This document shows positions 1,396-22,900 of a DNA stretch of 32,926 nucleotides, in pieces. The notes beneath the pieces were generated by a model. That model searched no databases and was not told the origin of the DNA. It worked only from the letters and a program-made list of their open reading frames with translations. The stretch comes from a virus. Made by a program: the position numbers and the translations under genes. The number at the start of each line of letters is the position of its first letter. The first letter of the stretch is position 1. The DNA lies in the IMG/VR virus record IMGVR_UViG_3300021090_000076, positions 1 through 32,926 of that record, one strand, 5' to 3'.

Positions 1396-3557
1396 GCCAC
1401 ACCATAGCCAACGAACTCTTCGCCGACCTGGAGACGTTCTCAACAATAGACCTGAAGCGCTGCGGCACACACCAATACGCCACTAAATCGGAAGTGATGC
1501 TGTTTCCTTACGCCATCGGCGAGGGCGAGGTGAAGTGCTGGGACCTCACAACCGACGGGCCGATACCCGACGATCTGCGCGAGGCGATGGAGGATCAAGA
1601 GCGCCGCACTGTCTGGCACAACGGCGGCATGTTCGACCTCACAGTGCTGAACGCCGTGGGCGGTCTGTACGACATCCCGCCGCTACCGCACTCGCGCGTG
1701 TTCGACACGATGGCCTGCGCCTTCGCGCACTCGCTGCCTGGATCGCTGGACACGCTCTGCGCAGTGATGGGCGTCGCCGCCGACAAGGCGAAGCACAAGG
1801 AAGGTAAAGCGCTGATCCAGCTGTTCTGCAAACCCCGCCCCAAGAATTCAAAACTGAGGAGAGCTACAAGTGAAACACACCCCGAAGAGTGGAAACGATT
1901 CATCGACTACGCCAAGGCGGACATCTCCTCCATGCGCGAAGTCTACCGGAAAGTCCCGCGCTGGAATTACCGCGGCTTCGAGTACGACCTCTGGCTTTTG
2001 GACCAACGAATCAACGCGCGCGGCGTGGCCGTCGATACTGCCCTTGCACGAGGCGCTGTTGTGGCTGCGGAACGAGCAAAAGACGTACTTGCATCACGGG
2101 CACAGATACTGACCGAGGGTGCCGTCCAGGCCACCACGCAGCGCGACAAGCTGATTGAACACCTGCTGGAGAGTTACGGCGTGCATCTGCCCGACTTGCA
2201 AATGGACACCATCGAACGTCGGCTGAGCGATCCCGATCTTCCCGTCGCGCTGCGAGAACTGCTCGCCAACAGGCTGCAAGCCAGCACCACGAGCGTCAGC
2301 AAGTATGGGACACTGCTTCGCTGCACCTCGGCGGATGGGCGCCTGCGTGGGTTGCTGCAGTTCGACGGCGCGGCTCGCACCGGACGTTGGTCTGGTCGCA
2401 TGTTCCAGCCGCAGAATTTGAAGCGCCCAGACATGAAGCCGAAGGACATCGAGTTTGGCATTGATGTCATCAAGTCGAACGCCTGCGAGTTCTTCTATGA
2501 CGACGTGATGCAAGTCGTGTCGAACGCCGTGCGGGGGTGCATCATCGCGCCGCCAGGGAGCAAGCTGTTCGTCGCCGACCTGTCGAACATCGAAGGCCGC
2601 AAGGGGGCATGGGTCGCGGGCGAAGACTGGAAGCTCCAGTATTTCCGCGACTACGACACCATAATTGGCTGGGGCACGGACAAGAAGGGGAACCCGAAGG
2701 CCATTCGGAAGGTAGAATTTGACAACTACATGATGGCCTACAGCAAGTCTTTCAACGTCGCGCCCGAGGTAGTGGAGGACAACAAGGAGAACGGTGACGG
2801 CACGATGCGCCAGATCGGCAAGGTGCAGGAACTCATGCTACAGTACGAAGGCGGCGTCGGCGCGTTCGTCACAGGCTCGGAAACGTACCGAATTGACCTG
2901 GACGACATGGCCGCGAAGGCGATGCCGCTCCTCCCGGAAGACGTGGTGAAAGAGTCCAGAGATTTCTTGAAGTGGATGCTGAAGCAGCGCCGCTCGACTT
3001 ATGGGCTGCCCGACGATGTGTACGTCGTCTGCAATGCACTGAAGATTTTGTGGCGCGCAGCGCATCCCGCAATCTCTTCACTCTGGCCTGAGCTTCAAGA
3101 CGGATTCAGAAATGCGGTAGCCCACCCCGGCGAGTGGTTCGTTGTCCACCGTGTAGCCTTCCGCAAGGATGGCGCCTGGCTGCGCGTGCGCTTACCGTCC
3201 GGTCGCTTCCTGTGCTACCCCTCACCCCAGGTTGACGAGAAGGGCGGTTGCAGCTACATGGGCATGAACCAGTACACGCGCCAATGGCAGCGCCTTGGAA
3301 CTTATGGCGGCAAGCTCTTTGAGAACATCTGTCAAGCATCGGCCCGCGATGTGATGGCGCACGCGATGCCCATCGCGGAGGAGCAGGGGTACAATGTCGT
3401 GCTCACCGTGCATGACGAGCTTATCACCGAGGCGCCCGACGATCTGGATCACAGTGTAGAAGGCCTGGCGGGGATCATGGCCACGGTGCCGTCGTGGGCG
3501 GAGGGGTTGCCCCTCGCGGCTGCGGGGTTCGAGGCTTATCGTTATCGAAAGGACTGA
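1392..3557 (+). CDS. Family A DNA polymerase with 3'-5' exonuclease
   Basis: 721 aa replicative polymerase of the Pol I/T7 type. The exonuclease domain shows all three motifs: DLETFS (Asp12, Glu14), HNGGMFD (76-82) and Y173xxxD177. The polymerase domain shows GRWSGRMFQPQNL (331-343), motif A with ADLSNIEGR (Asp396), motif B R473xxxK477xxxL481xxxY485, and motif C HDE (674-676), so both activities should be intact. There is no 5'-3' exonuclease domain, as is usual for phage enzymes. The position equivalent to E. coli Pol I Phe762 is Leu481. The ATG at 1392 is chosen because the exonuclease motif begins right after it, GAGGG precedes it, and it overlaps the upstream stop; an in-frame start further upstream would add unrelated sequence. 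It should act with the upstream ssDNA-binding protein and the downstream helicase. Confidence 0.95.
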   Translation: MSHTIANELFADLETFSTIDLKRCGTHQYATKSEVMLFPYAIGEGEVKCWDLTTDGPIPDDLREAMEDQERRTVWHNGGMFDLTVLNAVGGLYDIPPLPHSRVFDTMACAFAHSLPGSLDTLCAVMGVAADKAKHKEGKALIQLFCKPRPKNSKLRRATSETHPEEWKRFIDYAKADISSMREVYRKVPRWNYRGFEYDLWLLDQRINARGVAVDTALARGAVVAAERAKDVLASRAQILTEGAVQATTQRDKLIEHLLESYGVHLPDLQMDTIERRLSDPDLPVALRELLANRLQASTTSVSKYGTLLRCTSADGRLRGLLQFDGAARTGRWSGRMFQPQNLKRPDMKPKDIEFGIDVIKSNACEFFYDDVMQVVSNAVRGCIIAPPGSKLFVADLSNIEGRKGAWVAGEDWKLQYFRDYDTIIGWGTDKKGNPKAIRKVEFDNYMMAYSKSFNVAPEVVEDNKENGDGTMRQIGKVQELMLQYEGGVGAFVTGSETYRIDLDDMAAKAMPLLPEDVVKESRDFLKWMLKQRRSTYGLPDDVYVVCNALKILWRAAHPAISSLWPELQDGFRNAVAHPGEWFVVHRVAFRKDGAWLRVRLPSGRFLCYPSPQVDEKGGCSYMGMNQYTRQWQRLGTYGGKLFENICQASARDVMAHAMPIAEEQGYNVVLTVHDELITEAPDDLDHSVEGLAGIMATVPSWAEGLPLAAAGFEAYRYRKD

Positions 3558-3558
3558 T

Positions 3559-4179
3559 ATGTACGAGGTAAAAAGCGTTCCAGTTGCGTTGATAAAGCCT
3601 TTCATTGAGGAGCACCACTATAGTAAGAGCATCAACGGCTGCAAGGTTAGTATGGCTTTTGCTCTCTACGAAGACTCCGAGATAGTCGGCGCGGTTTTGT
3701 TCGGCCCTCTCTCCACTACGGCGTGGAAACGCTATGGGGAAAGGGAGAGTGACGTTGTTGAACTGCGTAGACTGGTGTGCCTCAACCGCTGCCCCCGCAA
3801 CACTGAATCGTGGCTAATTGCAAAATGTCTGCGCGCGCTGAAGAGACACACAACGTACCAAGTCTGCGTAAGCTACGCCGATCCCTACCACGGTCATATC
3901 GGTGTTATCTACCAAGCGTCAAACTGGCATTATGAGGGACAGACAGCGCCCGATGTTTTAATCCAAACACCCGAGGGCAAGCAGTACCATTCTCGCGCCC
4001 TCCGAACGAAGTACAAGGGGGATTTTAAGCCCTTTGCAAAACGGTTACAGAAAATGCGGGAGGATGGCGTTTTACTGGAGGTATCCGTGCCGGGCAAGCA
4101 CATCTATACATACACTCTGAGAGGCATTCAAAGGCCCTCTCGGTTGCCTTACCCCAAAATAAATTTGACAAGCGTTTAG
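3559..4179 (+). CDS. Mom-like DNA-modifying acyltransferase, copy 1
   Basis: 206 aa, starting one base after the polymerase stop. It resembles the Mu Mom family, a GNAT-related fold that converts adenine in phage DNA to a methylcarbamoyl-type derivative and so blocks restriction enzymes. Family-type features are an N-terminal HHYSK (19-23), GAVLFGP (44-50), ELRRLV (68-73), the core SYADPYHGHIGVIYQASNW (105-123), and a C-terminal GKHIYTY (179-185). A second, divergent copy lies at 5627. Base composition is visibly less GC-rich than in the polymerase gene, which hints at separate ancestry. The last four residues (LTSV) are encoded by the -35 region of a promoter for the next genes. Family assignment is by motif recognition; the modified base and acyl donor are unknown. 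Confidence 0.8.
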   Translation: MYEVKSVPVALIKPFIEEHHYSKSINGCKVSMAFALYEDSEIVGAVLFGPLSTTAWKRYGERESDVVELRRLVCLNRCPRNTESWLIAKCLRALKRHTTYQVCVSYADPYHGHIGVIYQASNWHYEGQTAPDVLIQTPEGKQYHSRALRTKYKGDFKPFAKRLQKMREDGVLLEVSVPGKHIYTYTLRGIQRPSRLPYPKINLTSV

Positions 4180-4194
4180 CATGTGCTGTACTAT
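4165..4194 (+). promoter_or_regulatory. Sigma70-type promoter, copy 1
   Basis: Perfect -35 TTGACA (4165-4170), an 18-base spacer and -10 TACTAT (4189-4194); TGTACT two bases earlier is an alternative -10. It is 34/38 identical to the promoter at 8971. The -35 lies inside the last codons of the upstream Mom-like gene and the stop TAG lies in the spacer. It should drive the small-gene cluster starting at 4230. Confidence 0.8.
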
Positions 4195-4229
4195 GGCTGC
4201 ACGCTGTCAAACCAACCAAGGAGAACAAC

Positions 4230-4361
4230 ATGAAAACCACCTACCTGAAGCAACTGACTGCCAAAGCAAAACGCCGCAGCGCATGGGCGAGCATCATCCC
4301 TGCTTCGCAGATCGCCAAGCCCTACACTGGCGTGATCCGCCACGTCGGCACCGCTTACTAA
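4230..4361 (+). CDS. Very small basic protein
   Basis: 43 aa, MKTTYLKQLTAKAKRRSAWA at the start and ending VIRHVGTAY. It is the first gene after promoter copy 1 and has a strong ribosome site (AAGGAG, 4218-4223) seven bases ahead of the ATG, which is the main evidence that it is real. It is Lys/Arg-rich in the first half (KAKRR) and has no membrane segment. First genes behind strong host-type promoters in phages often encode small host-takeover or inhibitor proteins, but there is no sequence evidence for that here. The first 15 bases of coding sequence are identical to those of the gene at 4693. Confidence 0.65.
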   Translation: MKTTYLKQLTAKAKRRSAWASIIPASQIAKPYTGVIRHVGTAY

Positions 4362-4369
4362 AAGTTTCA

Positions 4370-4440
4370 GCACCCGAAACGCAGAAGATACCCGCCGTCG
4401 AGTGGGTTCCTGTGAAGGCTCGAAGTAGGGTGCCTTTTTA
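4370..4440 (+). terminator. Possible weak terminator or attenuator
   Basis: GCACCC (4370-4375) can pair with GGGTGC (4428-4433), which is followed by CTTTTTATT. The stem is only six pairs across a 52-base loop, so this is a weak candidate; the GC stem followed by a T-run in an otherwise compact operon is the reason to list it. Confidence 0.2.
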
Positions 4441-4459
4441 TTCTGAAGGAGAATCAAAA

Positions 4460-4696
4460 ATGAAAGCTTTTCTTTGGCCGTTTTTTATCTCTGCCCTCTG
4501 TGGTGTGGGGCTGGCGCATCCCGCCTTTGGGAAGATTCTAGTCTGCGCGGCTGTGGCGGGTGCACTGTATGTGGTGCTCAAGTATCCACGAGTGCTAGGG
4601 GACCTTGTGGTGCTAGCGGCACAAGGCATTGCCGGGGCAACAATCATGTTCGCCCTTTGCCTTCCATTCTACGGCTTGAGGTACGCTTTCCAATGA
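4460..4696 (+). CDS. Small integral membrane protein
   Basis: 78 aa, beginning MKAFLWPFFISALCGVGLAH. Almost the whole protein is hydrophobic, with likely membrane helices at about residues 3-20, 25-40 and 48-70 separated by short basic turns (KYPRVLG). GAAGGAGA lies seven to ten bases before the ATG. The stop overlaps the next start (ATGA). No family is recognised. It could act in the inner membrane, for example in superinfection exclusion or host takeover, but that is only suggested by being a short membrane protein in a delayed-early-type cluster. Confidence 0.65.
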   Translation: MKAFLWPFFISALCGVGLAHPAFGKILVCAAVAGALYVVLKYPRVLGDLVVLAAQGIAGATIMFALCLPFYGLRYAFQ

Positions 4697-4848
4697 AAAC
4701 CACCTACGTCGTGGGCTATACCTTCCAAGGAGGCTGCGCCTCAACTGCCCGTTTCACCGAGCAGCGCAAGGCCTTTCGATTCATGGCCGACCTGATTGCA
4801 TCAGGCTATATCGAAATGACTTTGAAAGTTGAAAGGAGAGTGACATGA
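4693..4848 (+). CDS. Small hypothetical protein
   Basis: 51 aa, beginning MKTTYVVGYTFQGGCASTAR and ending EMTLKVERRVT. The start is set by the ATGA overlap with the preceding membrane gene, and the stop overlaps the next start in the same way. The sequence reads like a short beta strand followed by an amphipathic helix (TEQRKAFRFMADLIASG) and another strand, so a small alpha/beta fold is likely. No family is recognised. The opening 15 bases repeat those of the 43-aa gene at 4230. Confidence 0.6.
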   Translation: MKTTYVVGYTFQGGCASTARFTEQRKAFRFMADLIASGYIEMTLKVERRVT

Positions 4849-5039
4849 GCCACGAATTCAAGCACCCCATCATCGGGCAAGAAGCGGTAACGCGATACGG
4901 CCTTGGTCGGGTAGTTAAATGGAAGGACAAATTCCCCGAGCAAAGCATCACTGTCAAGGATTATGTCGGTGGGGTGGAACATGCCTTCTCGCCGCACAAT
5001 GTGCGCCTCGTGAAGATCGTCTTCGAGGACGAGGCATGA
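4845..5039 (+). CDS. Small hypothetical protein
   Basis: 64 aa, MSHEFKHPIIGQEAVTRYGL at the start. GAAAGGAGA sits just upstream of the ATG and the start overlaps the previous stop (ATGA). The pattern of short alternating hydrophobic stretches with IGQEAVTRYGLGRVVKWKD suggests a small beta barrel of the SH3-like kind that begins many chromatin or RNA-polymerase-binding domains, but this is a fold impression, not an identification. The C-terminus is acidic (VFEDEA). Translation is coupled to both neighbours. Confidence 0.6.
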   Translation: MSHEFKHPIIGQEAVTRYGLGRVVKWKDKFPEQSITVKDYVGGVEHAFSPHNVRLVKIVFEDEA

Positions 5040-5209
5040 CCGCTTGCTCTTCCACCCAGTGTCACGCGCGAGGCCTGTGCTACCGCGCTACCCAGACAAA
5101 GAACGCGCTCGACTTCGCACCGCTGATCGTCGAAACACCGGAAGGCCCTGCGTGCCCTATGTTCGTGTGCGCATATAAAGTTTTTGAACAGGAGGCTTGC
5201 TGTGACTAA
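5036..5209 (+). CDS. Small Cys-rich protein, putative zinc binder
   Basis: 57 aa with eight cysteines, including CSSTQCHARGLC near the start, CPMFVC in the C-terminal half and CC two residues before the end. The spacing suits one or two metal-binding knuckles. The ATG overlaps the upstream stop (ATGA), and the end runs eight bases into the nuclease gene that follows. It is the immediate partner of the VRR-NUC gene in the operon, so a nucleic-acid-linked role is possible. No named family is recognised. Confidence 0.6.
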   Translation: MTACSSTQCHARGLCYRATQTKNALDFAPLIVETPEGPACPMFVCAYKVFEQEACCD

Positions 5210-5630
5210 GTTCACCCTGCCCGAAGGCGTTGCGCCGAAGCCGAAGAAGTTCCATGAGCGCGAGAGTGCGGTGGAAAACCATCTCGTCTACCGCACGAAG
5301 TCGCGAGGCGAGATCGCGTACAAGTTCACCAGCCCGCAACGGCGCAGTGTGCCGGATCGTTTGGTGCTGGGTGATATGCGAGCCGCGGGGGTAAAACTGC
5401 GGAGGCTTCTAGCCTCGTGCGGCGTCGCAACGGCCCTCGTCGAGGACGCCGTGCGGGATAGACAGGCGGCGGAGATTGTGGCGGAGATGATCCACTTCGT
5501 CGAGTTGAAAGCAACAGGCGCGAAGCCCACCGAGTTGCAAGAGCGCGAGCACGCGAAGTTGCGCGAGCGCGGGTTCACTGTGCTGGTGATCGACAGCAAG
5601 GCAGAAGTTGACAGGAGGTATCCGAAATGA
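5202..5630 (+). CDS. VRR-NUC domain nuclease
   Basis: 142 aa, GTG start at 5202 with AGGAGG (5190-5195) six bases ahead; the in-frame TTG at 5184 lacks such a site. Motifs of the PD-(D/E)XK VRR-NUC family are present: Glu21/Glu25 in the first helix, GEIAYKF then RRSVPDRLVL (Asp52), VELKATG (Glu101, Lys103) and Q113xxxH117 followed by RERGFTVLVID. These enzymes act on branched or structured DNA and are standard in phage replication modules. Between the PDRLVL strand and the ELK strand lies an Arg/Ala-rich helical insert of about 40 residues, where many family members have only a few. The stop overlaps the second Mom-like gene (ATGA). Confidence 0.88.
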   Translation: MTKFTLPEGVAPKPKKFHERESAVENHLVYRTKSRGEIAYKFTSPQRRSVPDRLVLGDMRAAGVKLRRLLASCGVATALVEDAVRDRQAAEIVAEMIHFVELKATGAKPTELQEREHAKLRERGFTVLVIDSKAEVDRRYPK

Positions 5631-6301
5631 CTTTCCACTTCGTCGTTAACCCTCCTCGGGAAGAGATAAAAAGACTGATATTGACACACCATTATTCAAA
5701 GCGCATGCCCTCTGGGTGCATGTATTCCTTCGGCTTGCGCGATGGTGGAGGACTCCTTGTAGCTGCGATAACTTTCTCCTCCCCTGCGGGGCGTTGGCAC
5801 GAACCCGTCGTTGAACTGAGCCGACTTGTTCGCGTGGAGGCGGACGGCATACCACTGGTGTCTTTGATCTCTCGCAGTGTTCGCGAGATCAAGAAAGCAA
5901 GAAAGCACGATCTTATAATTTCGTTTGCGGATAGCACCCACGGCCACCACGGCGGAGTCTACCAGGCAGCCTCGTGGAACTATTCACACACCAAGGTGCC
6001 CGCCATCGACGGGTTCGTTGTGGATGGTCTGTTCGTTCCTTCTCGCACTTGCAACACTCGGTGGGGGACTTGCTTGGCCAGAGAACTGCCAAGGATACTT
6101 GCGCTCCGGGGGGTAGTCGCCATACCCCATCGCGATTCGGGAAAGCATGTGTACTGGAAAGCCTTGTCTCGCTCTGGCGAACAAAAGGCCCTCGCATTAC
6201 ACCTCGATAAAAGGGAGTACCCCAAACCCCTACTACGCCCGGTCACATACTCATGGCAGCGTTTTCGTGCATCGAGAGACAACGCCAATGACAAAGCGTA
6301 A
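5627..6301 (+). CDS. Mom-like DNA-modifying acyltransferase, copy 2
   Basis: 224 aa, translationally coupled to the VRR-NUC gene. It shares the framework of the copy at 3559: HHYSK (21-25), a GCMYSFGL strand, ELSRLV (63-68), SFADSTHGHHGGVYQAASW (99-117) and GKHVYWKAL (172-180). The two proteins differ in length and over most residues, so they are diverged paralogues rather than a recent duplication. The family precedent is Mu Mom, which modifies adenine in phage DNA and protects it from restriction. The C-terminus is longer, with a basic KREYPKPLLRP segment not seen in copy 1. The end overlaps the helicase start by 14 bases. Substrate and donor are unknown; a non-DNA acyltransferase role is less likely. 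Confidence 0.78.
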   Translation: MTFHFVVNPPREEIKRLILTHHYSKRMPSGCMYSFGLRDGGGLLVAAITFSSPAGRWHEPVVELSRLVRVEADGIPLVSLISRSVREIKKARKHDLIISFADSTHGHHGGVYQAASWNYSHTKVPAIDGFVVDGLFVPSRTCNTRWGTCLARELPRILALRGVVAIPHRDSGKHVYWKALSRSGEQKALALHLDKREYPKPLLRPVTYSWQRFRASRDNANDKA

Positions 6302-7697
6302 AGTCTTCACGCCTCACGGCTACCAGGACCTGATAATTGCGCACGCCTCGCAGGTTCCGCGCAGTGCGGTGTTCGCTGGGATGGGCTTAGGAAAAACGGT
6401 GAGCACGCTCACGGTGATAGACAACCACATCCTGTGCGGCGAGAGCCACCCTACCCTGATCGCGGCGCCGTTGCGCGTTGCCAAGACGACATGGCCGGAA
6501 GAGGCGAAGAAGTGGGACCACCTGCGCAACATCTCCGTGGTGCCAATCGTGGGTAGCGAAGCCGAGCGACGCGCGGCACTGAAGACAGACGCCAGCGTCT
6601 ACACGACGAACTACGAGCAGCTGCCGTGGCTGATCGACCACTACGGCGAGCGCTGGCCTTTTCGCAACTTCGTCTCCGACGAGTCCACGAAGCTGAAGTC
6701 TTTCAGGCTGCGCCAGGGTGGCGCACGCGCACAAGCCCTCGGGAAGATCGCGCACACGAAGATCAAGCGCTTCACCGAGTTGACGGGCACACCAGCACCG
6801 AACGGACTGCAAGACTTGTGGGGTCAAATGTGGTTCATGGATGCGGGCCAACGACTCGGGCGCACCTTCGAGGCATACAAGCAGCGGTGGTTCAAGCCAT
6901 CCCCTGACGGGTACGGATCGGTGCCGCTGCCGCACGCGCAGGAAGAGATCGAGAACCTGTTGCGCGACATCTGCATCACCATCGACGCGAAGGATTGGTT
7001 CGACCTTGAGGAGCCGATTGCCACGCCGGTGTATGTTGACCTGCCGATCAAGGTGCGCAAGCTGTACCGCGACATGGAGAAAGACCTGTTCATGCAGTTC
7101 GATGGCCACGAGGTTGAGGCCTTCAACGCGGCGGCGAAGACGCAGAAGCTGCTGCAACTTGCGAGCGGCGCGGTATACATAGACCCTGATGCCGACAACG
7201 ATTACCATCCGAAAAGCAAAGAATGGAAGGAGGTGCATGATGCAAAAATTCAAGCACTGGACGACATTATCGAAGAAGCCGCCGGTATGCCTGTTTTGGT
7301 GGCCTACCATTTCAAGAGCGACCTTGCTCGGTTACAGCGAGCGTTCCCTAAAGGTCGGCAGCTTGACGCTGATCCTGCGACGATTGCGTCGTGGAATGCG
7401 GGGCACATTCCTGTTTTATTCGCTCACCCAGCATCGGCAGGGCACGGCCTTAACCTTCAGGATGGCGGAAACATACTGGTCTATCTCAGCCATGATTGGA
7501 ACTTGGAAAATCGGCAGCAGATTCTCGAACGCATCGGGCCTGTGAGGCAGATGCAATCTGGGCATGATCGTCCGGTGTTCGTGTACAACATTATCGCCCG
7601 CGACACCGTGGACGAAATAGTCATTGCAAGAGTCGAAGGCAAAGCAACACTGCAAGAGTTGTTCTTGCGGGCAATGAAGAAGGCGCTTGGGCGATGA
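6288..7697 (+). CDS. SNF2-type (SF2) helicase/ATPase
   Basis: 469 aa. Walker A is AGMGLGKT (30-37), motif II is DEST (131-134), motif III is LTGTPAPNGLQDLWGQM (165-181), and the C-terminal RecA-like domain carries AGHGLNLQ and QILERIGPVRQ (motifs V and VI). This set is typical of phage SNF2-like helicases, which translocate on duplex DNA and are found beside VRR-NUC nucleases in many phage replication modules; the pair probably works together at replication or recombination intermediates. The ATG at 6288 is chosen because the product then begins with the Q-motif region (TPHGYQDLII); it overlaps the upstream gene by 14 bases and has only a weak ribosome site, so coupling is likely. The stop overlaps the HNH gene by four bases. 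Confidence 0.93.
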   Translation: MTKRKVFTPHGYQDLIIAHASQVPRSAVFAGMGLGKTVSTLTVIDNHILCGESHPTLIAAPLRVAKTTWPEEAKKWDHLRNISVVPIVGSEAERRAALKTDASVYTTNYEQLPWLIDHYGERWPFRNFVSDESTKLKSFRLRQGGARAQALGKIAHTKIKRFTELTGTPAPNGLQDLWGQMWFMDAGQRLGRTFEAYKQRWFKPSPDGYGSVPLPHAQEEIENLLRDICITIDAKDWFDLEEPIATPVYVDLPIKVRKLYRDMEKDLFMQFDGHEVEAFNAAAKTQKLLQLASGAVYIDPDADNDYHPKSKEWKEVHDAKIQALDDIIEEAAGMPVLVAYHFKSDLARLQRAFPKGRQLDADPATIASWNAGHIPVLFAHPASAGHGLNLQDGGNILVYLSHDWNLENRQQILERIGPVRQMQSGHDRPVFVYNIIARDTVDEIVIARVEGKATLQELFLRAMKKALGR

Positions 7698-8296
7698 CCA
7701 CCAAGTACCAAAAACACTACGATGCATTGGTCGAGCGTGCTAGGCACCGCGCGATTGAAGGATACTGCGAGCGCCACCACGTCCTACCTCGGTGCATGGG
7801 TGGCGACAATGACCCACGCAACCTTGTTCGGCTCACAGCAGAAGAGCACTATGTAGCACATCAGCTACTTGTGAGGATGTACCCGAGCGTTGGGGGCTTA
7901 GCAACGGCTGCGGTACGTATGGCACGGCAGTGTAGTGGGAACAAAGCGTATGCTTGGCTAAGGCGGCGCCATGCAGAAGCAGTGTCCCTGCGCGCCAAGG
8001 GGAACCGGTATGGCCTCGGCTACACCCGCACGGAAGAAGAACGCGCGCGCATATCCGCCGCACTAAAAGGGCGAAAGAAATCCGTTGAAACAAAGAGGCG
8101 CATGTCCAAAGCACAGTGTGGAAACAAAAAGGCTTTTGGACTGAAGAGGGGTCCCCCGACGGCTGAGCACAGAGAAAAGAACGCTGCGGCGCGCAGGGGT
8201 AAAAAGATGCCGCCCAGGACGGAAGAGCATAAGGCTAAAATTTCTGCTGCAAGAATATCTTACTTTGAAAGGCTACGCCATGAACGAAACATGTAA
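7694..8296 (+). CDS. HNH homing-type endonuclease with NUMOD3-like repeats
   Basis: 200 aa. The N-terminal nuclease contains CERHHVLPRCMGG (25-37), Asn43 and EEHYVAHQLL (51-60), the usual HNH metal and catalytic pattern. From about residue 107 the protein carries repeated S-x-E-type DNA-binding segments (YTRTEEERARISAALKG, SVETKRRMSKAQ, TAEHREKNAAARRGK, TEEHKAKISAA) of the NUMOD3 kind found in free-standing phage homing endonucleases. It overlaps the helicase stop by four bases and the next gene by 17, so it has settled in the operon without disrupting either neighbour. It is probably a selfish element that cuts related phages lacking it. No intron is visible. Confidence 0.9.
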   Translation: MTTKYQKHYDALVERARHRAIEGYCERHHVLPRCMGGDNDPRNLVRLTAEEHYVAHQLLVRMYPSVGGLATAAVRMARQCSGNKAYAWLRRRHAEAVSLRAKGNRYGLGYTRTEEERARISAALKGRKKSVETKRRMSKAQCGNKKAFGLKRGPPTAEHREKNAAARRGKKMPPRTEEHKAKISAARISYFERLRHERNM

Positions 8297-8744: not shown

Positions 8745-8985
8745 ACTCGGTTCCTTTATCGAAGCATGTGTGAATGTCTTCATCGGCTTCTGGATCAACT
8801 TCGTCGCGAACCTCCTGATCCTACCGCTGTTCGGCTTTTCCAGCCTGACGCTGGCGAACAACTTCTACATTGGCCTGCTTTACACCGTGATTTCGGTTGT
8901 GCGGTCCTACGCAGTACGCAGATGGTTCAACGCGAAGATGCACGCGGCGGCGGAAGGCTGGGCGCGGCGCTTGACAAGCGTTTAG
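8731..8985 (+). CDS. Small membrane protein (DUF7220-like)
   Basis: 84 aa, MGQTKLGSFIEACVNVFIGF at the start. Two hydrophobic helices (about 12-33 and 41-57) are followed by a basic VVRSYAVRRWFNAKM segment. This arrangement, with NFVANLLILPLFGF between the helices and RSYxxRRxFN after them, is a widespread phage protein that I believe is filed as DUF7220; its function is unknown. GGAGGAGAG precedes the ATG. It overlaps the upstream gene by 14 bases. Its last residues LTSV are encoded by the -35 element of the second promoter copy, as in the Mom-like gene at 3559. Confidence 0.75.
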   Translation: MGQTKLGSFIEACVNVFIGFWINFVANLLILPLFGFSSLTLANNFYIGLLYTVISVVRSYAVRRWFNAKMHAAAEGWARRLTSV

Positions 8986-9000
8986 CTTATGCTGTAATAT
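8971..9000 (+). promoter_or_regulatory. Sigma70-type promoter, copy 2 (tRNA promoter)
   Basis: Perfect -35 TTGACA (8971-8976), an 18-base spacer and -10 TAATAT (8995-9000); TGTAAT at 8993 with a 16-base spacer is an alternative. It is nearly identical to copy 1 at 4165, and its -35 again overlaps the end of the upstream gene. The expected start site, about 9005-9009, is right at the mature 5' end of the tRNA. Confidence 0.85.
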
Positions 9001-9009
9001 GCCTGCACA

Positions 9010-9085
9010 GGTTGGGTAGCTCAGCGGTAGAGCAGAGTCCCTTATAAGGCTTTGGCCGGTGGTTCGAGTCCACCCCCAACCACCA
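9010..9085 (+). tRNA. tRNA-Ile(UAU)
   Basis: The acceptor stem GGTTGGG (9010-9016) pairs perfectly with CCCAACC (9075-9081), followed by A and an encoded CCA. The D-arm is GCTC/GAGC (9019-9033) and the T-arm GGTGG-TTCGAGT-CCACC. The anticodon loop CTTATAA (9041-9047) gives anticodon TAT, reading AUA, a codon that is normally rare in GC-rich hosts. The anticodon stem is irregular (AGTCC/GGCTT has one mismatch and one G-U) and there is one extra base between D-arm and anticodon stem. It lies directly behind promoter copy 2 and upstream of a coding gene, so the transcript must be processed at its 3' side. Confidence 0.88.
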
Positions 9086-9899: not shown

Positions 9900-10276
9900 G
9901 GCCTGACGGGGGTGGGCGGGGTGCCTTTCTGCTGGCCATCCTGCTTGGCGCCTTGGCCGTCTTCGCGTCGGATCGCGCCGCAGCGCTGGAGCAGGACAAG
10001 CAGCAGCATATCGCAATCTCCGCTCTGCTTGGCATGGCCGCAGCCATAGCGCTTGAAGATTCTGATCACCCGATCTTGTACGGCGCGGTAGTGGCTACCT
10101 TGCCCGGTGTTGTGAAGGAACTGTACGACGCCCGCCATCCGCGCAACCATACCGCAAGCGGCGCTGATCTGGTCGCCGACGTAACAGGAGCCGTGACCGG
10201 GGCATGGATCGGACACCACCTGCAGCTGCGGGCGCATCGTAATAGCGCGGAAGTCAAGTTCACGGGGGAGTTTTAG
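9896..10276 (+). CDS. YfiM/DUF2279-like exported protein
   Basis: 126 aa, GTG start at 9896 with AGGGGA upstream. The N-terminus has a hydrophobic stretch (AFLLAILLGALAVFA) ending near AAALEQ, typical of a signal peptide. The mature part shows DKQQHIAISALLG, VVKELYDARHPRNHTASG and ADLVADVTGAVTGA, the pattern of the YfiM/DUF2279 group of small periplasmic or lipoprotein-like proteins. No lipobox Cys is seen, so it would be periplasmic or anchored by the N-terminal helix. Phage copies are known but their role is not established; an effect on the envelope is the natural guess. Confidence 0.65.
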   Translation: MRPDGGGRGAFLLAILLGALAVFASDRAAALEQDKQQHIAISALLGMAAAIALEDSDHPILYGAVVATLPGVVKELYDARHPRNHTASGADLVADVTGAVTGAWIGHHLQLRAHRNSAEVKFTGEF

Positions 10277-13977: not shown

Positions 13978-16900
13978 TCACTTTCTTGGGGGGCCTACTA
14001 CCGCCGCTTCGGGGCCTGCCTCGCCTTCCAGCCATGCCTTCGCCCCCATTGTGGTGTCCGATATTTGCTTGCCGGGGAGGCCTATGGCGAAGCTGGTCCC
14101 CATGATGATGCTCTTCAAGTCCTTGTCGTCACCCTCGCCCGTTGCTACGTCATACAGAGACTTGGTGCCCCTACCTACTCCCTCGAAGGCGGACTGCACC
14201 GGAGTCAACTTCAACCCGTAATTCTTGACATCGCTGTCGAATTGTGCCCAAGTGAAGGTGCCTACGTCCCGCACCAGAGGGACCATGGCTAACCCATAAG
14301 CCGCTATCGCGCGCGAGTATTTACCAAGCCACTTCTCGGGGTCTTCGTCCGGGTCGTCTTTCTTGAAAATCATTGCGGTCAGCACAGCCGGTAGAACCAC
14401 GATCACCATGAAATCCTTGGTGAAACGCGCCACTGCAAGGGAGGGATTCGTCTTCAATTCGTGCTTGCTGATTACCCCGCTGCGTACCAACATGCCAAGC
14501 TGCGAATTGAAATAGCTGTAAAACATGGTGAATACCTTTTTCAGCTGCCCGTATCCGCCATGGCCCGACATTACCTGGGCAACGTCCAGTTCGCGCCCGG
14601 AGCCTTGCGACTGACGTACCGTGTGGTCGGCATAGTCTACGGCCTTCGATGTGTCGTTCTCGAATTTCTTCATGCCCTCGGAGAAGGCGGCATTCCATAC
14701 CGGCACGCTGGTGCCCTTGTCCACGGTGGACATCAAGATCAGCCATGAACTGGTATCCGGTAGGTAATCAAGAACACCCTTTCCAACAGTCATCTTTTTC
14801 ACGTCATTTTGCAGGTCGCGGTCGAAGGAGCTATGCCGGTTGCGCATGTACTCAGACTGGGATAAGGCGAAATCATACCGCTCTTTCATCTTCGGGCTGT
14901 AGAACAGCGCGATCTCTTTCGCCAGCCTGCCGGGGTTCACCCGCGCAGTCGCCGACACGAAGCCGGTGAAGTTCTGCAGCGCGGTGCTCACCCCGGACAT
15001 AAGCGTGACGACCGTATTCTTGCGAGCGACACTGAGCGTTTTCTCAACGAAGCCGGAAGGATTGCGGGGAGGAGCCGCGATCTCGCGCACGCGAGTAACC
15101 AGTGCGCGGTAAGCCGGAGTCCCCGCGGCTGTCTTTATCGTGTTCTGCACCCGCACGTCGTTCAGCATACGCATCGTGTCGGCCACAGCCTCGCGGTAGG
15201 CGATGTCATGTACCGTCTCAGACACGGCTTCAGCGAACACCCCAAGATCGAGCCGCGGGCGCATGGTGACGTTCTGCTTGCGCTCCGTGCTGGCGCCTTG
15301 GCCAGTCTTCGCCGACATACCCATTCCGCCGCCGAGCAGTTCCTTGACTGCTGCGCCTTCGTCTAACCTCTGTGCGCGCTCGTCAAGGTTCGTGTCGTAC
15401 TTCAAGCGGAAGTAGCCGCCGCGGTATTTCTTGCCTTGGTGTTTCACCTCCACGGCTTCGACCTTGGGAGGCGACTTGCCGCGAGTCCGGTCATTCAACT
15501 CTTTCAATTCCGGCCACAGGTCGTTGTCAAACAAGTCCCAGATGCCTTGGGCAAGGGTCATATCGCGCTCGTCCAGCAGGTTCACGATGTCCTCCTGCTT
15601 CTTCTCGCTCCAGCCGTAGTTCGCCAGCCGCTCGCGGCCTTCAGCATTCCCGTGAAGCAGGGCCACGACCAGCGCGTTCTCTCGGGTTAGGCTCATGCCG
15701 ATGGGGGTACCGATGTCCTTGCGCGCGAAGTCGTAGCGCTCTTTCACGCTGTACTGGCCAAACAGCGGGGCCATCTTGGAGTAGATGTCGCCAATACGTG
15801 TAGCCTTCCAGTCTGCGCGCTTGCTCATGCGTCCCAGCAGCGACTCGTGCGCCAGTCCGAACTCGCCGCCTTCAAGCAGGTTTACCAGAGTCTCAGCGTT
15901 CAGGAACTCGCCCATGAACTTGTCGCCGAGATCGCCGACTTTATCCTTGAAGTGCTTGACGAACTTCGGCGACATGCCTAGGGGTTCGCCATCCAGCGCG
16001 AAGGCTTCCGGGTGGAACTGGCGAATACGCTCCAACAGGGCGGTGCGCTCTTCCTTGAACTTCATGCCACGGATGGCCTGGTACTGCGTCTCTTCCCGGC
16101 GAGCCAGCATTTCAAGCTGCTTGATCGCGTCTACTAACCCGCGGAACTCTTCGACCGTCATTTCTTTGTACGACGTGCGGTTCGCCTCGTTCAGAATCCA
16201 AGCCGGGATGTCGGGCATCACGGCAGATATGCGCTCCGACTCGGCGGCCAGCCATTCAGCCAGAGGCGTGCGCTTCTGGTCAATCTCCTTAAGCGCGGTG
16301 CTCTTGCGCAGGTCGAAGCGGGCCAGCAGTTCGTTCAGTTGGATCAGGTACTCGCCGCGCATGTTCTTCTGGGCGGCGGCCTTCTGCGTGCGCGTCATGT
16401 GGTCTACACCCTTACGCACCTCTTCCTGCGCGTCCTGCGCAGCCTTCGCCAGCCGATTGTTTAGCAGAGCCGAGCGTTGTGCGCGCTGTGCCGCCTGCAC
16501 GTCCTTGGCCGCCTTCTTCAGCACTTCCTTGCTCGCCTTCGTCTCAGCGGCGATGTACTGCGCCGGGTGCAAGTCGCGCACCTTCTTCGCCGCGATAGCT
16601 TGATCAGCTGCGTCTGTTGCCGCCTTCTGAATCTGCGAGGCGGGCAGCTTCGAGTTCGACAGCATCTTCAAGCCGGTAGCCATGAAGCGCGCACGCGCCT
16701 CGTTATGCACAGCTTCGTTGGCTGCATCTTCAACCGCGCGGTCGTCAACCATGTCGCCGTAGCGCTCCAGCATGCGCTGGTCGATCAGGCCCGTGATCTT
16801 GTCTTTCGGATTCTCGCCGTCGATCAGTTCGCGGATCAGCGCGTCACCCGAGCGGAAGCCGAACATATCCGCCACCAGATCGGGATGCAGGCCATCAGCT

Positions 16901-19900
16901 TCGGTCATACCGCGGAGCTTCGAAATGTCGGGACGAGCAAGCATCGTCTCGGGATACAACTCGGCGACGATACCACGGTTCAGGCGGAAACCTTCGGCAG
17001 CTTGGATGCTCTCGCCGTCGGGGCCAGTGGTCGTGCCCTTGCGCAGGAATGCGCGGGCCTGATTGATCGGCTCTGCGTTCACCTCGGCGGTCACTTCGGC
17101 GCGAACTTCTTTGCGCTTGCTGGAGGCTTCACGCTGCAGCTTCTTCAACTCTTGCGACTTGGCATTCGACAGCCACTTCATATCGCGCAGCGAACGGCGC
17201 TGCAAGTCGTCACCCGCGTCGTCCCCCGCTGCGAGATGGAGTGCGAGATACGCGGCCTTGTCCTTCGAGTTAGCTGCTTCGATCATAGCTTCCGTCATGC
17301 CGGTGCGGCGCTGCACGGTGGCGATGGCTTCTTCCGAGGCAAGCATACGGTCGAATACTCCGCGCACTTCGTCGGTTAGTTCGACGTTCAAGTTCGTGAT
17401 GGTGCGATAGACGTGCAGCAACCAAGTCTTGAAGGATGCGAAGATCGAGCGCAGATCATTCGAAGGTGCCTTGCCTTCAAACAGGTACGCCTCGAAGCCT
17501 CGCGCGAACTTCTCATGGTGCGAGCGCTTCTGCTCGAAGGAGAGCGCGTTCCACTCGGTCAGGTCCTTCACACCGAACCAGTTCAGTACCTTCGTGAAGT
17601 CGTCGCGCATCTCCGGCGTGGCGCGCGGATCGCTCGCGAGCGCTGCTTCCGTTTCAAGGAAGAAGTGCCCAGTCTCGTGTAGGAACGTGGTCAGGTCGGC
17701 ATCTTTCAGCAGGCTGATCGTAAGCGTGTCAGGGTTGAAGGTGCCGCGGTTTTTCTGGAACAGCGGCTGTCCTTGCAGCGCGATCTCGCGCATCTGCGGC
17801 GTGACCTCGAGGGTAGGCTGCACATTCAGCGCGTTCTCTTTGCCTTTGTCGGATAGTTTACCGAAGCCGGGGTTGGTTTTAAGCCCTATCACCTGCCCGC
17901 CGCCCAGCTTCTTCGCTACTTGGTTCGCAACCTTCGCAAGGATCGCAGGCTTGCCAGAGGGATCGAGTCCAGCCGTGTCGCCGTAGAACTTCGTCATGCC
18001 GAGGTCGGCGACGACAATATCCACCCCCTTGATGTGCCCGCTTTGATTCGGGTCTTCGATGATGCGCTTCGCCATCGTCTTGCCGATAGCGGCAGAGAGA
18101 TCATTCTCGCCGTAGTTGGTATTCGCGCGCTCGCTTGCACCCTTCATCGCGATGATGTGAATCTTCCCATCCTCGGACTTCTCCCACACGATCTCGTCAA
18201 CTTGCTTGCGTAGACCGTAGGACCAGCGATGTGTTTGCTGGCCGCCGGTTGTCCATGAGATCAGGTCAAAGCCACCCTTCGCGGCTTGGTGGATCGCGTC
18301 CTTCATCACGAGGCCAACCCATGCATCGGTTGACTCTACGAAGGCGCCAGGTGTAACTGGCTTGGTCCTTTCCAACGCGGTAACCTCATCCTGGATGGCG
18401 GACTCTTCCGAACGGAGTTCGTACCACGCCTCAGACTGGCCGTTAGCTTCGCGCTCCTTGATGCCCTCGCGGTGCTTAGCATCCAGCTTCCGCTGCAAGG
18501 CTTCATGCTTCCGCGCCAGTTCGAACGCCGTCATCTCGCCCGGAATCATCACAGTCTTCGCGCGTTGGATGTACTCCATCGCATCTGCTAGGTCCGGGTA
18601 GTGCGAACGCGCGATGCGGAATACCTGGTCGGGAGCTTTGATGATCCACTCAGCCTCCGCGATGCGCAGCTTGCCTTGTTCCGCGGCTTCCTTCGTGGTG
18701 AACATCTCTCCAGGGTAGGCGTTCAAGTCATCTTCCGTGTGCAGGTGCCAGAACTCTACCTGGTCTTTCACCAGCCCCTTATCCCTTGTGTGGGTGTACC
18801 CGCTGCGGTTGTTGATCCTTGATACCCTGATCTGCGCTAATGCCTCGGCACCACTCTCCGCCGTTGCGGCTTCATCCAGCACGAGTTCGTCCGCCGCGTA
18901 GCGCTTCGCCACTTCAGGACGATCACGTCCCTGCTGCGCCCAATCCGACTGCACCTCTTCAATGAAGTACACCTTCGCTGCCGTGCGGCCTTCAGCCTTC
19001 ATGCGCGCGGCGAGTTCAGGGAATTCTTTTTCAATGGCCTCGAGGGGAACTTCGCGGTCGTCTACGCGCGAGTGCCCGATGATGTTGTCGTCGCCGAAGT
19101 GGTTGGTATAGCTGAACGTCTCGCCTTTGTGCGACTTGTTCAGCAGCAGGCGCTCGCGGTAGTTCTCGCCGCCGGAGAGCTTGTAGCTTTCGAACTTCGG
19201 AGCTTCTTCGTCATCGACTTCGGAAAGGCCGTACTCGTTGTCTAGGAATTCACGGATCGCGGATTCGATGTCGGCGCCGTCGATGTTGCGGCCTGAGACT
19301 TCGACGCTCTTGTTCGACTCGTGAGCGTACAGGTAGTGCTCGCCGTAGCTGTTCGACCATGTGAAGTTGAAAGTGCGCCCGCCAGCTTCGACTTCGACGC
19401 TGCTGTTCTGGGGCGAATCGCTGTCCCCCCAGTAGCTTTCGCGCTCCTGTTCGAAGGCGCCCTCCACGAGTTTTTCAAACAGCTTGTACCCTCTAGTACC
19501 TTCCGTTTTCTGTGCGCTCTGGCCTGGGCCACTTTCGTTTATGTATCCCCCCACAGCCTCGACGGCGGTGTCAATGCTGCCATCTTCGTCCGCGATGCCC
19601 TCCAACCCGCTGCGCAGTTCGTCCTCACCCATTGAGCGCACGCGATCTTGCGCATGTTCTCGCAGCCAGTCCTCGTCTGGTTCTTCCGTTTCCCATTGGC
19701 CAAAAGTGAAGTCGAACTCGGCCACGGTGCCTTCGCCGCCGTAGACACGCGGCTCCACCGTGACGGCGTTCTCTTTCAAGAAGTCGGTGATCTCTTCCTT
19801 GGTGACGACCTTGGAAGGCTGGTACAGGCGCACGTCGGCCCTAGTCGGTGCCTCCGGCTTCGGATCGGTAGCGGGTAACGCGCGATACGTCACGCTGTCT

Positions 19901-22900
19901 TCGCCAACGACGTGCCAACTGTCGGCCTTATCTTTGCGAACTTCAAGCCATTCTTGCAGGCCGGTGTACTCAATCTCCATTGGCTTGACGCCTTTCTGCG
20001 TCAAGCTCTTGAGAGTGCCGAGCCATTGATCCGGCGAGGCCTTGGCCAGCTTGGTTTCTTCGAACGCGCGGGTCAGGGCGCTATAGAAAGGCGGACGTTC
20101 TCCTGGGGGTTCCGACTGATAAAGGAGTCGTTCGGCTCCGGGAAGCTGTTCCAGTGAGAGCCGAGCCATCTCAGCAAATACGGTACGTCGAGTTTCCCCT
20201 TTTGCCGAAAGTAGGGTGTTCGCGAAAACCGTTCTTTTAGCAGAGGCCAAGCCAGGCGCACCTTCTCTTCGTACCTGGTCAGGGTTCCGTCGGGCCTTGG
20301 CGACGAGTCCTGCAAGATCGGCAGGAGCGCCTGTATCTCGGGCGATGAATTCACGTTGCGTAAAATCGAAGTAGACATTTTTCAACTCCGGTATGTCGAG
20401 GTTGGCTAAATTATACGACGCATTTAGCATTTGTTCAACATTATTTTTTGAGTCGTCAGTCCAGTTGATCTTCAGGCCAGTCTCTTGTTCCATAAAATCA
20501 ATCTGCTTCGGGTGCAAGCGCATGTAACTGGTGTCGCCGGATTGCAGGGCGTGCGACAGCAAATTCTCCAGACGGCGCTTGATGCCGGCCACCGAGATGC
20601 CTTGCGCGTCGCCGTGGAAGACGAAGCCATTCGCCTGCGCGAAGTCGAGCAGCGCCTTGTAGACGCCAGAACCACCGCGGCCTTCGCCCCAACGGGTGAT
20701 GTCAATCTGCATAGAACGGTCGGCCATGTCGAGATAGACCGCCGCGCTGCTGTTCCCGCTCACGATCTCATAGGCGAACCCTCCGGCAGGGAGACGCTGC
20801 GTGCCTTCGTGCCGTTTCGTGATATTCTTCACCGAGGTGTCCACCATGCCCTGCATCACGGCGTCGAGGGTGTCGCTCAGCGCGCGTTGAAGACCTGGTG
20901 CGTCGTCGGCGAAGGCTTTCACCTGGGTGGTGCCGTACTGCGCAGCCGTCTCGCTGGCTGCGTACATCGCCCAGAGCTTGCGCAGGTCGGCGAGGTCTTG
21001 CTGTTCCAGCTTGCCGGTAGGAGGCAGCGTCTCGGCGACTTCGTTCAGGGCTTGGGCATACTCTGTTGCCCTGGGCGGGATGTCCACTTCCACGTCCCGC
21101 GTCGCATCACCCAGCAGCACGCCGACGCCTTGATTGCCGAATCCTTCTTTGATGTAGTAGCCATCGAAGCCGGCCTCGACGACTGCGGCCTCGAAGGCGT
21201 TCGGCTCACTTGGGAACCCGAGGGGGTTCTTCGCGCCGTCGTAGACGTTGTCCAGCGTCAACTCGTGGCGGAAGGCACCCACACCCGGCTCGGGGCGCAC
21301 GCCTTGGCCCTCGTCCACGTAGAACGAGACGCGCTGCCCTATCTTCGGGCGTGCGTTCGGGTCACCCAGGCGGCGAGCTTCCGCGCCTTTGATGCCGGTG
21401 CCATACATGCGCCCTGACAGCGAACTGCGCGGCGCGCGGGAGAAGTGCACAACCTCGACGGTGACGCTGCCTACGCGCTCGTCGGAGGCGGGCAGCGTCT
21501 TGCCGAAGTCGATCTCCACAGCGAACGTCGCGCCGGTGGAGGGGATCGTGCTGTAGAAGTCGCTCGGGGCCTTGGCGTGCACCGTGACGCTCTTGGCAGA
21601 GTTCACTGTCCCGTCGGCGTTCACGAAGCCATCGCGCGTGAGCACCGCTTGCTGGCCATACTTGCTGCCGAGTTCATTCGCTTGCTCGCGTGTGATCCCG
21701 GTGATGGCTACCAAGTTCTCTACGTTGCCGTACTTGCCCTGAACATCCAGGTACTGCACGCCCATCGCATCCAGATCGGCTTTCAGTTCGGCGCTGCGCT
21801 GCGCATTCTCTTCAGGAGAAAGCTGCTGCGCGTTCGGATTCTCCGCTGTCATAATTGCCCAGTCGGCTTTCCGCAACAAGTCCTTGACGCTGTTCGGTTT
21901 GAAGTCGTCGAGTGTTGCCTTGCGCACCTTTGCGCGACGGCGGAAGCCGTAGTCGCTGGAAGCTGGTGAGGTTTCGGTGGCCACGTACGCGGGCGCAGAA
22001 TTGTAGCCGAGTAGTCGCAGCGCACGCGCACGGTGTTGTCCCTCAGCCACGTACGCTTGCTTTCCTACAGGGCGCGCCACGGTCAGGGGGGTGATCTCTC
22101 CGCTTGCTTTGATCTCCTCAGCCAGCGCGGCGATGCGCCCCCTCCCTTCTGGTGAATTCAACTCGGCAGAATCTTGCAGTGCTACGTCGTCGAAGCTCAC
22201 CTCAACCACTCCGGGCGTGATCTCGAAGGGCTGATCGGCGAAGGCCGATGCGGCCTGCACCGAGACATCTTCCCTTGCCTCGCGCAGGGTCAGCCCTTGG
22301 AAGTCGCTGATCGCCTTATCCACCTTCTGCTGTTCCAACTCCGCGCCACCAGTGCGCTCGGCTTGAACCTTGATGTCGAACTGCGCCAGCAACTCGGAAG
22401 GCTTGACGCCCAGCTTCTGTGCGCGAGTGATGAAGTACGCCTGCTGCAGCGCCGCGTACTTTTTGTTCGCGTCCGGGGTGAAGCGCTGCGCGCCTTCGAT
22501 GCGCGAGTACAGCGTATCGAACACCTGCTTGGCATCCACCTGGAATTCAGCGTCCTGTTCCTTCTCGGCCAGCAGCTGATCGGCCTCGGCCTTCATCCGC
22601 TCGGTTTGGCCTTTAGTTTCTTCCTGCATTTCGGTGAGGGTCATACCCCCTGCTTCTAGCTTTGCGCTCGGCTCTATCGCTGGCGCGAGTTCACTACCCG
22701 CGATGTGCGCCAGGTAGTCCTCAATTGGTACACGCACAAAGCCGTCAAGGCTCGCAGCATCGCCGATCTGACTTACTATCTCCGGCATGTCTTGCGCGAA
22801 CTTCTGCTGTACTTCGATGGACGCTTGAGCCAGCGCGTTGTGGAGGGCGTTGCCCTCGACAAACACTTCCTTCAGATCGGACTCTTCAGCCAGTGTTTTG

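What the first reader, a model, noticed from the sequence alone, without database searches (positions are those of the whole stretch)
3559..6301. Two diverged Mom-like acyltransferases in one phage operon
Both proteins share HHYSK, an EL(R/S)RLV strand, a [SF]-x-ADxxHGHxGxVYQAxxW-type core and GKHxY, but differ over most of their length. Mu needs only one Mom to hypermodify its DNA. Two divergent copies flanking a small-gene cluster and a VRR-NUC gene suggest two modification specificities, a heteromer, or one copy recruited for another substrate. The pair could form an undescribed dual anti-restriction layer.
Basis: partly seen in the sequence, partly recalled or inferred. Interest (0 to 1): 0.75.

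Follow-up and report, generated by a model that had tools for sequence, protein, structure and literature searches.

The report
Two separately acquired phage Mom genes
This bacterial virus picked up two distantly related copies of Mom, an enzyme that chemically disguises viral DNA from bacterial defences; one copy looks fully working, while the other belongs to an unstudied branch and has uniquely lost an amino acid that the best-studied Mom appears to need.

Summary
Window 3559-4179 (MomA, 206 aa) and 5627-6301 (MomB, 224 aa) are both Mom-family proteins. Both score above the Pfam cut-off, both give confident GNAT-fold models, and the solved phage Mu Mom (8bv8) is the best PDB fold match for each. 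They are 32% identical and fall in two separate clades, so they are not a recent duplication. Clade B is almost absent from cultured phages.

A close relative (L219) has the same replication operon with neither gene. Its two junctions give near-exact empty sites, and 22 of 22 related records carry no Mom. Both genes also have foreign codon composition. They are therefore two independent cargo acquisitions. The VRR-NUC gene between them belongs to the old backbone, not to a Mom system.

MomA keeps every family-conserved residue. MomB keeps 27 of 28, but has valine where 169 of 169 other distinct Mom sequences have Ser or Thr. This is Mu Ser124; the PDB title calls S124A inactive. MomA is probably the working DNA hypermodification enzyme. 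MomB is probably not a second standard copy: it is donor-altered, weak, or a non-catalytic partner.

Multi-Mom phages recur in environmental viruses. No chemistry was tested.

The parts
3559..4179 (+). momA: canonical clade-A Mom protein, 206 aa. Inserted segment about 3554-4164; the last four codons (LTSV) and the TAG stop come from recipient DNA
   Evidence: PF25680 E 6e-37; fold match to Mu Mom 8bv8 E 1.5e-12; clade A, SH-aLRT 99; empty site in L219; keeps 28/28 family columns
3808..3810 (+). MomA Ser84 codon, equivalent of Mu Ser124
   Evidence: alignment column
4165..4194 (+). promoter-like element TTGACA-18-TACTAT overlapping the 3' end of momA, probably driving the downstream genes
   Evidence: the first 27 bases are identical in mom-less relative L219 at 6352; a second copy lies at 8971
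4230..5039 (+). small-gene cluster of the backbone, between momA and the VRR-NUC gene
   Evidence: partly conserved in L219
5184..5630 (+). VRR-NUC-type endonuclease of the replication module; backbone gene, not Mom-linked
   Evidence: phrog_93 E 8e-20; present in mom-less relatives; same module in BPP-1
5627..6301 (+). momB: clade-B Mom protein, 224 aa; inserted segment about 5616-6293
   Evidence: PF25680 E 5e-19; fold match to 8bv8 E 2.3e-10; clade B, SH-aLRT 97; empty site in L219; keeps 27/28 family columns
5858..5860 (+). MomB Val78 codon (GTG) at the position of Mu Ser124
   Evidence: Ser/Thr in the other 169 of 170 distinct Mom sequences
6288..7697 (+). SNF2-type DNA helicase, downstream border of the momB insertion
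   Evidence: SNF2-rel_dom E 2e-13; 95% identical in L219
1392..3557 (+). family A DNA polymerase, upstream border of the momA insertion
   Evidence: phrog_17 E 8e-99; 55% identical to Bordetella phage BPP-1

Best explanation
The phage carries two Mom-family GNAT-fold enzymes that entered a pre-existing replication operon (polymerase, small genes, VRR-NUC, SNF2 helicase) as two separate single-gene insertions from two old Mom clades. MomA is a canonical Mom: it most likely transfers a small acyl-type group from a CoA-type donor to adenine N6 in the replicating phage DNA, giving a modification like Mu's that blocks host restriction. MomB shares the fold and nearly all active-site residues but has Val at the Ser124 position, next to the predicted donor-binding loop. 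It therefore most likely has altered or reduced catalysis: another donor or target, or a partner/regulatory role. It is unlikely to be a second copy of the same activity. Shown here: family, fold, clades, insertions and the substitution. Inferred: activity, substrate, donor-loop position and anti-restriction role.
For: Both proteins pass the Mom profile cut-off. Confident models, pLDDT 95.5 and 92.4. 8bv8, Mu Mom, is the top PDB hit of both, with E-values about four to six orders better than any other GNAT. Two separate supported clades, A 99 and B 97. Empty sites at both junctions in L219, 76-89% identical over most homologous blocks. No Mom in 22 of 22 relatives sharing the replication module. 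GC3 of 0.60 and 0.59 for momA and momB against 0.72-0.76 for backbone genes. MomA keeps 28/28 and MomB 27/28 family-conserved columns. Ser/Thr at the Mu Ser124 column in 169 of 170 distinct sequences, Val only in window MomB. The 8bv8 title names S124A an inactive mutant.
Against: No activity or modified base was measured. MomB has a Ser at the next residue (Ser79) that could partly stand in for the lost hydroxyl. MomB otherwise keeps 46 of 48 clade-B columns, which also fits a fully active enzyme of changed chemistry. The Val codon is read from a single metagenomic contig. L219 could have lost both genes rather than the window having gained them, although 22 of 22 relatives lack them.
Confidence: 0.62

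Rival explanations
1. Both Moms are active DNA modification enzymes with different target-sequence specificities, which together cover more restriction sites.
For: Other multi-Mom records carry a clade-B protein with Ser/Thr intact plus another Mom. Tandem B-A pairs with overlapping reading frames recur in marine contigs. The clades differ in loops outside the invariant core.
Against: In this window MomB has Val at the Ser124 position, and S124A of Mu Mom is titled inactive.
Confidence: 0.22
2. MomB is a non-catalytic partner or specificity subunit of MomA (a Mom heteromer).
For: Conserved core but lost hydroxyl in only one of the two copies; recurrent adjacency of B and A genes elsewhere.
Against: momA and momB lie in separate junctions, probably under different promoters. 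Clade B occurs alone in most records. Complexes could not be modelled with the tools here.
Confidence: 0.15
3. MomB is a decaying gene on the way to loss, and MomA does all the work.
For: Loss of a residue conserved in all other sequences.
Against: Intact 224-codon frame; 27 of 28 family and 46 of 48 clade-B columns kept on a long branch. Free drift would be expected to hit more of them.
Confidence: 0.15
4. A Mom plus VRR-NUC restriction-modification pair, in which Mom protects phage DNA and the nuclease attacks unmodified DNA, as proposed for jumbo-phage Mom-nuclease fusions (PMC7824862).
For: momB overlaps the end of the VRR-NUC gene by 4 bases. Mom-REase fusions have been described.
Against: The nuclease is a backbone gene found in mom-less relatives and in the BPP-1-like module.
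Confidence: 0.04

Closest known systems
Phage Mu Mom (PDB 8bv8; NC_000929 Mup55)
   Same: GNAT fold, same invariant residues (Mu H58, Y59, S60, E108, L109, R111, S146, A148, D149, G156, Y159), whole-length profile match, YPK near the C-terminus
   Different: Mu has one Mom, controlled by the overlapping com gene. The window has two, outside Mu's branch of the tree, and MomB lacks the Ser124 equivalent
Mom of Salmonella phage FSL SP-031 (Cornellvirus)
   Same: About 51% identical to MomA, same clade A, next to the DNA polymerase gene in a polymerase-endonuclease-SNF2 module
   Different: Upstream rather than downstream of the polymerase; single copy in that record
Pseudanabaena phage Pan3 hypothetical protein Pan3_58
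   Same: 31.6% identical to MomB, E 4e-19, in the clade-B branch, near a VRR-NUC gene
   Different: The only cultured clade-B member found; annotated as hypothetical; has Ser at the Ser124 position
Multi-Mom environmental viruses (L050/L051/L063 tandem B-A; L026/L028; L057/L058)
   Same: A clade-B Mom together with another Mom in one record
   Different: Other replication modules (clamp loader, family B polymerase); Ser/Thr kept in their B copies

Membership tests
Mom (PF25680), MomA | profile score above curated cut-off | tested here: met
   127.7 bits against 27.1
Mom (PF25680), MomA | GNAT fold nearest to Mu Mom | tested here: met
   8bv8_A E 1.5e-12, TM 0.74/0.69
Mom (PF25680), MomA | family-invariant active-site residues including Ser/Thr at Mu Ser124 | tested here: met
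   28 of 28 columns, Ser84 present
Mom (PF25680), MomB | profile score above curated cut-off | tested here: met
   69.2 bits against 27.1
Mom (PF25680), MomB | GNAT fold nearest to Mu Mom | tested here: met
   8bv8_A E 2.3e-10, TM 0.64; clade-B-led profile hits only 8bv8 in the PDB, E 3.9e-22
Mom (PF25680), MomB | family-invariant residues other than Ser124 (HYS, EL.R, S.AD, G, Y) | tested here: met
   H22 Y23 S24 E63 L64 R66 S99 A101 D102 G109 Y112
catalytically standard Mom, MomB | Ser/Thr at Mu Ser124 | tested here: not met
   Val78; 169 of 169 other distinct sequences have Ser/Thr
Mom DNA hypermodification enzyme | modified adenine in virion DNA and restriction resistance | not testable with these tools
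   needs LC-MS of nucleosides and digestion of DNA
Mu-type mom regulation | Com-like translational regulator overlapping mom | not tested
   no dedicated search; no com-like overlap is evident because momA directly follows the polymerase stop codon
Mom-nuclease fusion / restriction pair | nuclease linked to Mom by descent | tested here: not met
   VRR-NUC gene present in relatives without Mom

The most novel reading that the evidence does not exclude
MomB is a Mom paralog that has left the standard reaction (Ser/Thr to Val at the otherwise universal position) and now either uses another donor or target or acts as a non-catalytic specificity partner of MomA, making this a first two-protein Mom system.
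Probability: 0.2. Interest if true: 0.72.

Novelty: new variant of a known kind. Interest (0 to 1): 0.5.

Why it matters
Mom's chemistry is still debated, and most Mom work concerns a single protein from phage Mu. This locus offers a natural pair: one canonical copy and one that differs from every other Mom examined at a residue that appears to be needed for activity, with nearly clean empty sites in a close relative. It also brings out a Mom clade that is widespread in environmental viruses, nearly missing from cultured phages, and repeatedly paired with another Mom. If the copies differ in specificity or donor, phages stack DNA disguises, which can be tested directly by expression and mass spectrometry.

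Tried and rejected
Recent duplication: rejected, because the copies are in separate supported clades. Chance motif sharing: rejected. Mom plus VRR-NUC restriction pair: rejected by synteny. MomB as an unrelated GNAT acetyltransferase: rejected, because 8bv8 leads the fold search by about four orders of magnitude and is the only PDB hit of the clade-B profile. MomB as plain pseudogene: disfavoured. Alignment shift as the cause of the Val78 result: considered; clade-B neighbours have the same length here (PL[ST]xLIS against PLVSLIS), so no gap is involved. The library did not hold the Mu Mom biochemistry paper that I looked up, and the searches made found no paper on paired Moms. A search for near relatives of the structural half in cultured phages gave nothing. 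Restriction-site avoidance was not tested because it would be weak evidence.

Full report
Observation. They are 32% identical over 186 residues, E 2e-16. Each passes the curated cut-off of Pfam Mom PF25680 (127.7 and 69.2 bits against 27.1) and matches PHROG 1384, Mom-like DNA modification protein. The window is an IMG/VR virus record of 32,926 bases with exactly two Mom hits.

Fold. AlphaFold2 models built from window and locus sequences are confident (MomB pLDDT 92.4, MomA 95.5). Against the PDB, the best match of both is 8bv8, titled 'Crystal structure of the phage Mu protein Mom inactive mutant S124A' (MomA E 1.5e-12, TM 0.74; MomB E 2.3e-10, TM 0.64). The next GNATs are at 5e-6 or worse. 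A clade-B-led profile finds 8bv8 as its only PDB hit (E 3.9e-22; clade B alone E 5e-6).

Two clades. A tree of 119 Mom sequences puts MomA in clade A (SH-aLRT 99) and MomB in clade B (97, 42 rows), with Mu Mom outside both. MomA's nearest relatives are about 80% identical; MomB's are under 50%. In cultured-phage records clade B is represented only by Pseudanabaena phage Pan3 (31.6%, E 4e-19), but it is common in IMG/VR and occurs in a few bacterial genome contigs: a Verrucomicrobiota MAG, Bradyrhizobium sp. Tv2a-2 and an Acetobacteraceae MAG.

How they arrived. The surrounding operon is a replication module like that of Bordetella phage BPP-1 (polymerase, endonuclease, small genes, SNF2 helicase). 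A close relative, L219, is 76-89% identical over most homologous blocks out to window 15933 and has the same gene order without either mom. At site 1, homology runs to window 3553 (L219 6328) and resumes at 4165 (L219 6352). It resumes at a promoter-like TTGACAAGCGTTTAGCATGTGCTGTAC that is identical in both, and the momA frame ends inside it, so its last residues LTSV and its TAG stop are recipient DNA. At site 2, homology runs to 5615 (L219 7950) and resumes at 6294 (L219 8004). All 22 records with the related replication module have no Mom at all. Third-position GC is 0.60 for momA and 0.59 for momB, against 0.72-0.76 for backbone genes. Two separate gains are the simplest reading. The VRR-NUC gene is backbone and predates both.

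Active site. MomA keeps 28 of 28 family-conserved columns, MomB 27 of 28. The one exception is the column of Mu Ser124: Ser or Thr in 169 of 170 distinct Mom sequences, Val (codon GTG, 5858-5860) only in the window's MomB. The neighbours read PL[ST]xLIS against PLVSLIS without a gap. Since the 8bv8 title names S124A inactive, MomB is probably impaired in, or changed from, the standard reaction. Its Ser79, one residue on, might partly compensate. Because almost everything else is conserved, simple decay is not the favoured reading.

Generality. Among Mom-bearing environmental records searched whole (not a random sample), 13 others carry two or more Mom genes. Several are tandem B-A pairs with overlapping reading frames (L050, L051, L063), and others are B with another Mom kilobases away (L026/L028, L057/L058). 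Their B copies keep Ser/Thr. In cultured-phage records a MomA search gave 294 places in 293 records, so paired Moms are rare there. No paper on paired Moms was found in the searches made.

Mechanism. MomA most likely acts as Mu Mom does, adding a small group to adenine N6 of phage DNA and so blocking restriction. The acyl-CoA and adenine-N6 reading comes from PMC7824862 and established knowledge, and was not tested here. MomB most likely has different or weakened catalysis, or a partner role. Which of these holds cannot be decided from sequence.

Verdict. This is a real, well-supported pair of Mom genes of independent origin, with a uniquely altered second copy. It is a new variant of a known kind. 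The dual anti-restriction layer remains a hypothesis.

Noticed in passing
window 7694-8296: NUMOD3/HNH homing endonuclease gene, also extra relative to L219 (window 7685-8285 against L219 9395-9538) and with low GC3 (0.56), so a third cargo insertion in the same operon.
   Followed up: partly
window 8971-9085: tRNA-Ile (anticodon tat) preceded by a second copy of the promoter-like element found at 4165; L219 also has a second copy of the element at 10224, but the window is longer than L219 at the tRNA.
   Followed up: partly
window 13978-24354, minus strand: 3458-aa protein with weak N-terminal similarity to the virion RNA polymerase family phrog_2206 (E 4e-14, residues 244-639) and a C-terminal half matching phrog_9880 of unknown function.
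   Followed up: no
L051 1301-6067 and L052 1014-5780: Three Mom genes of different types within 5 kb of one viral contig.
   Followed up: partly
L071 7731-8362, L072 7962-8593, L189 7962-8593: A clade-B Mom split over two overlapping reading frames in two viral contigs and an Acetobacteraceae genome contig: frameshifted gene or programmed frameshift.
   Followed up: no
L185 1486-2219: In Microbacterium phage Warren a tRNA-Gly gene lies directly next to the Mom gene; chance or a hint about the glycine-like donor.
   Followed up: no
L209 2787-6217: A Mom-carrying record has NAMPT-like and Nudix/cytidylyltransferase (NAD salvage) genes directly downstream of its Mom.
   Followed up: no
L136, L155, L160, L170: Several clade-A Mom matches are reported with TGA, TAG or TAA at or inside the match, which may point to phages with reassigned stop codons.
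   Followed up: no
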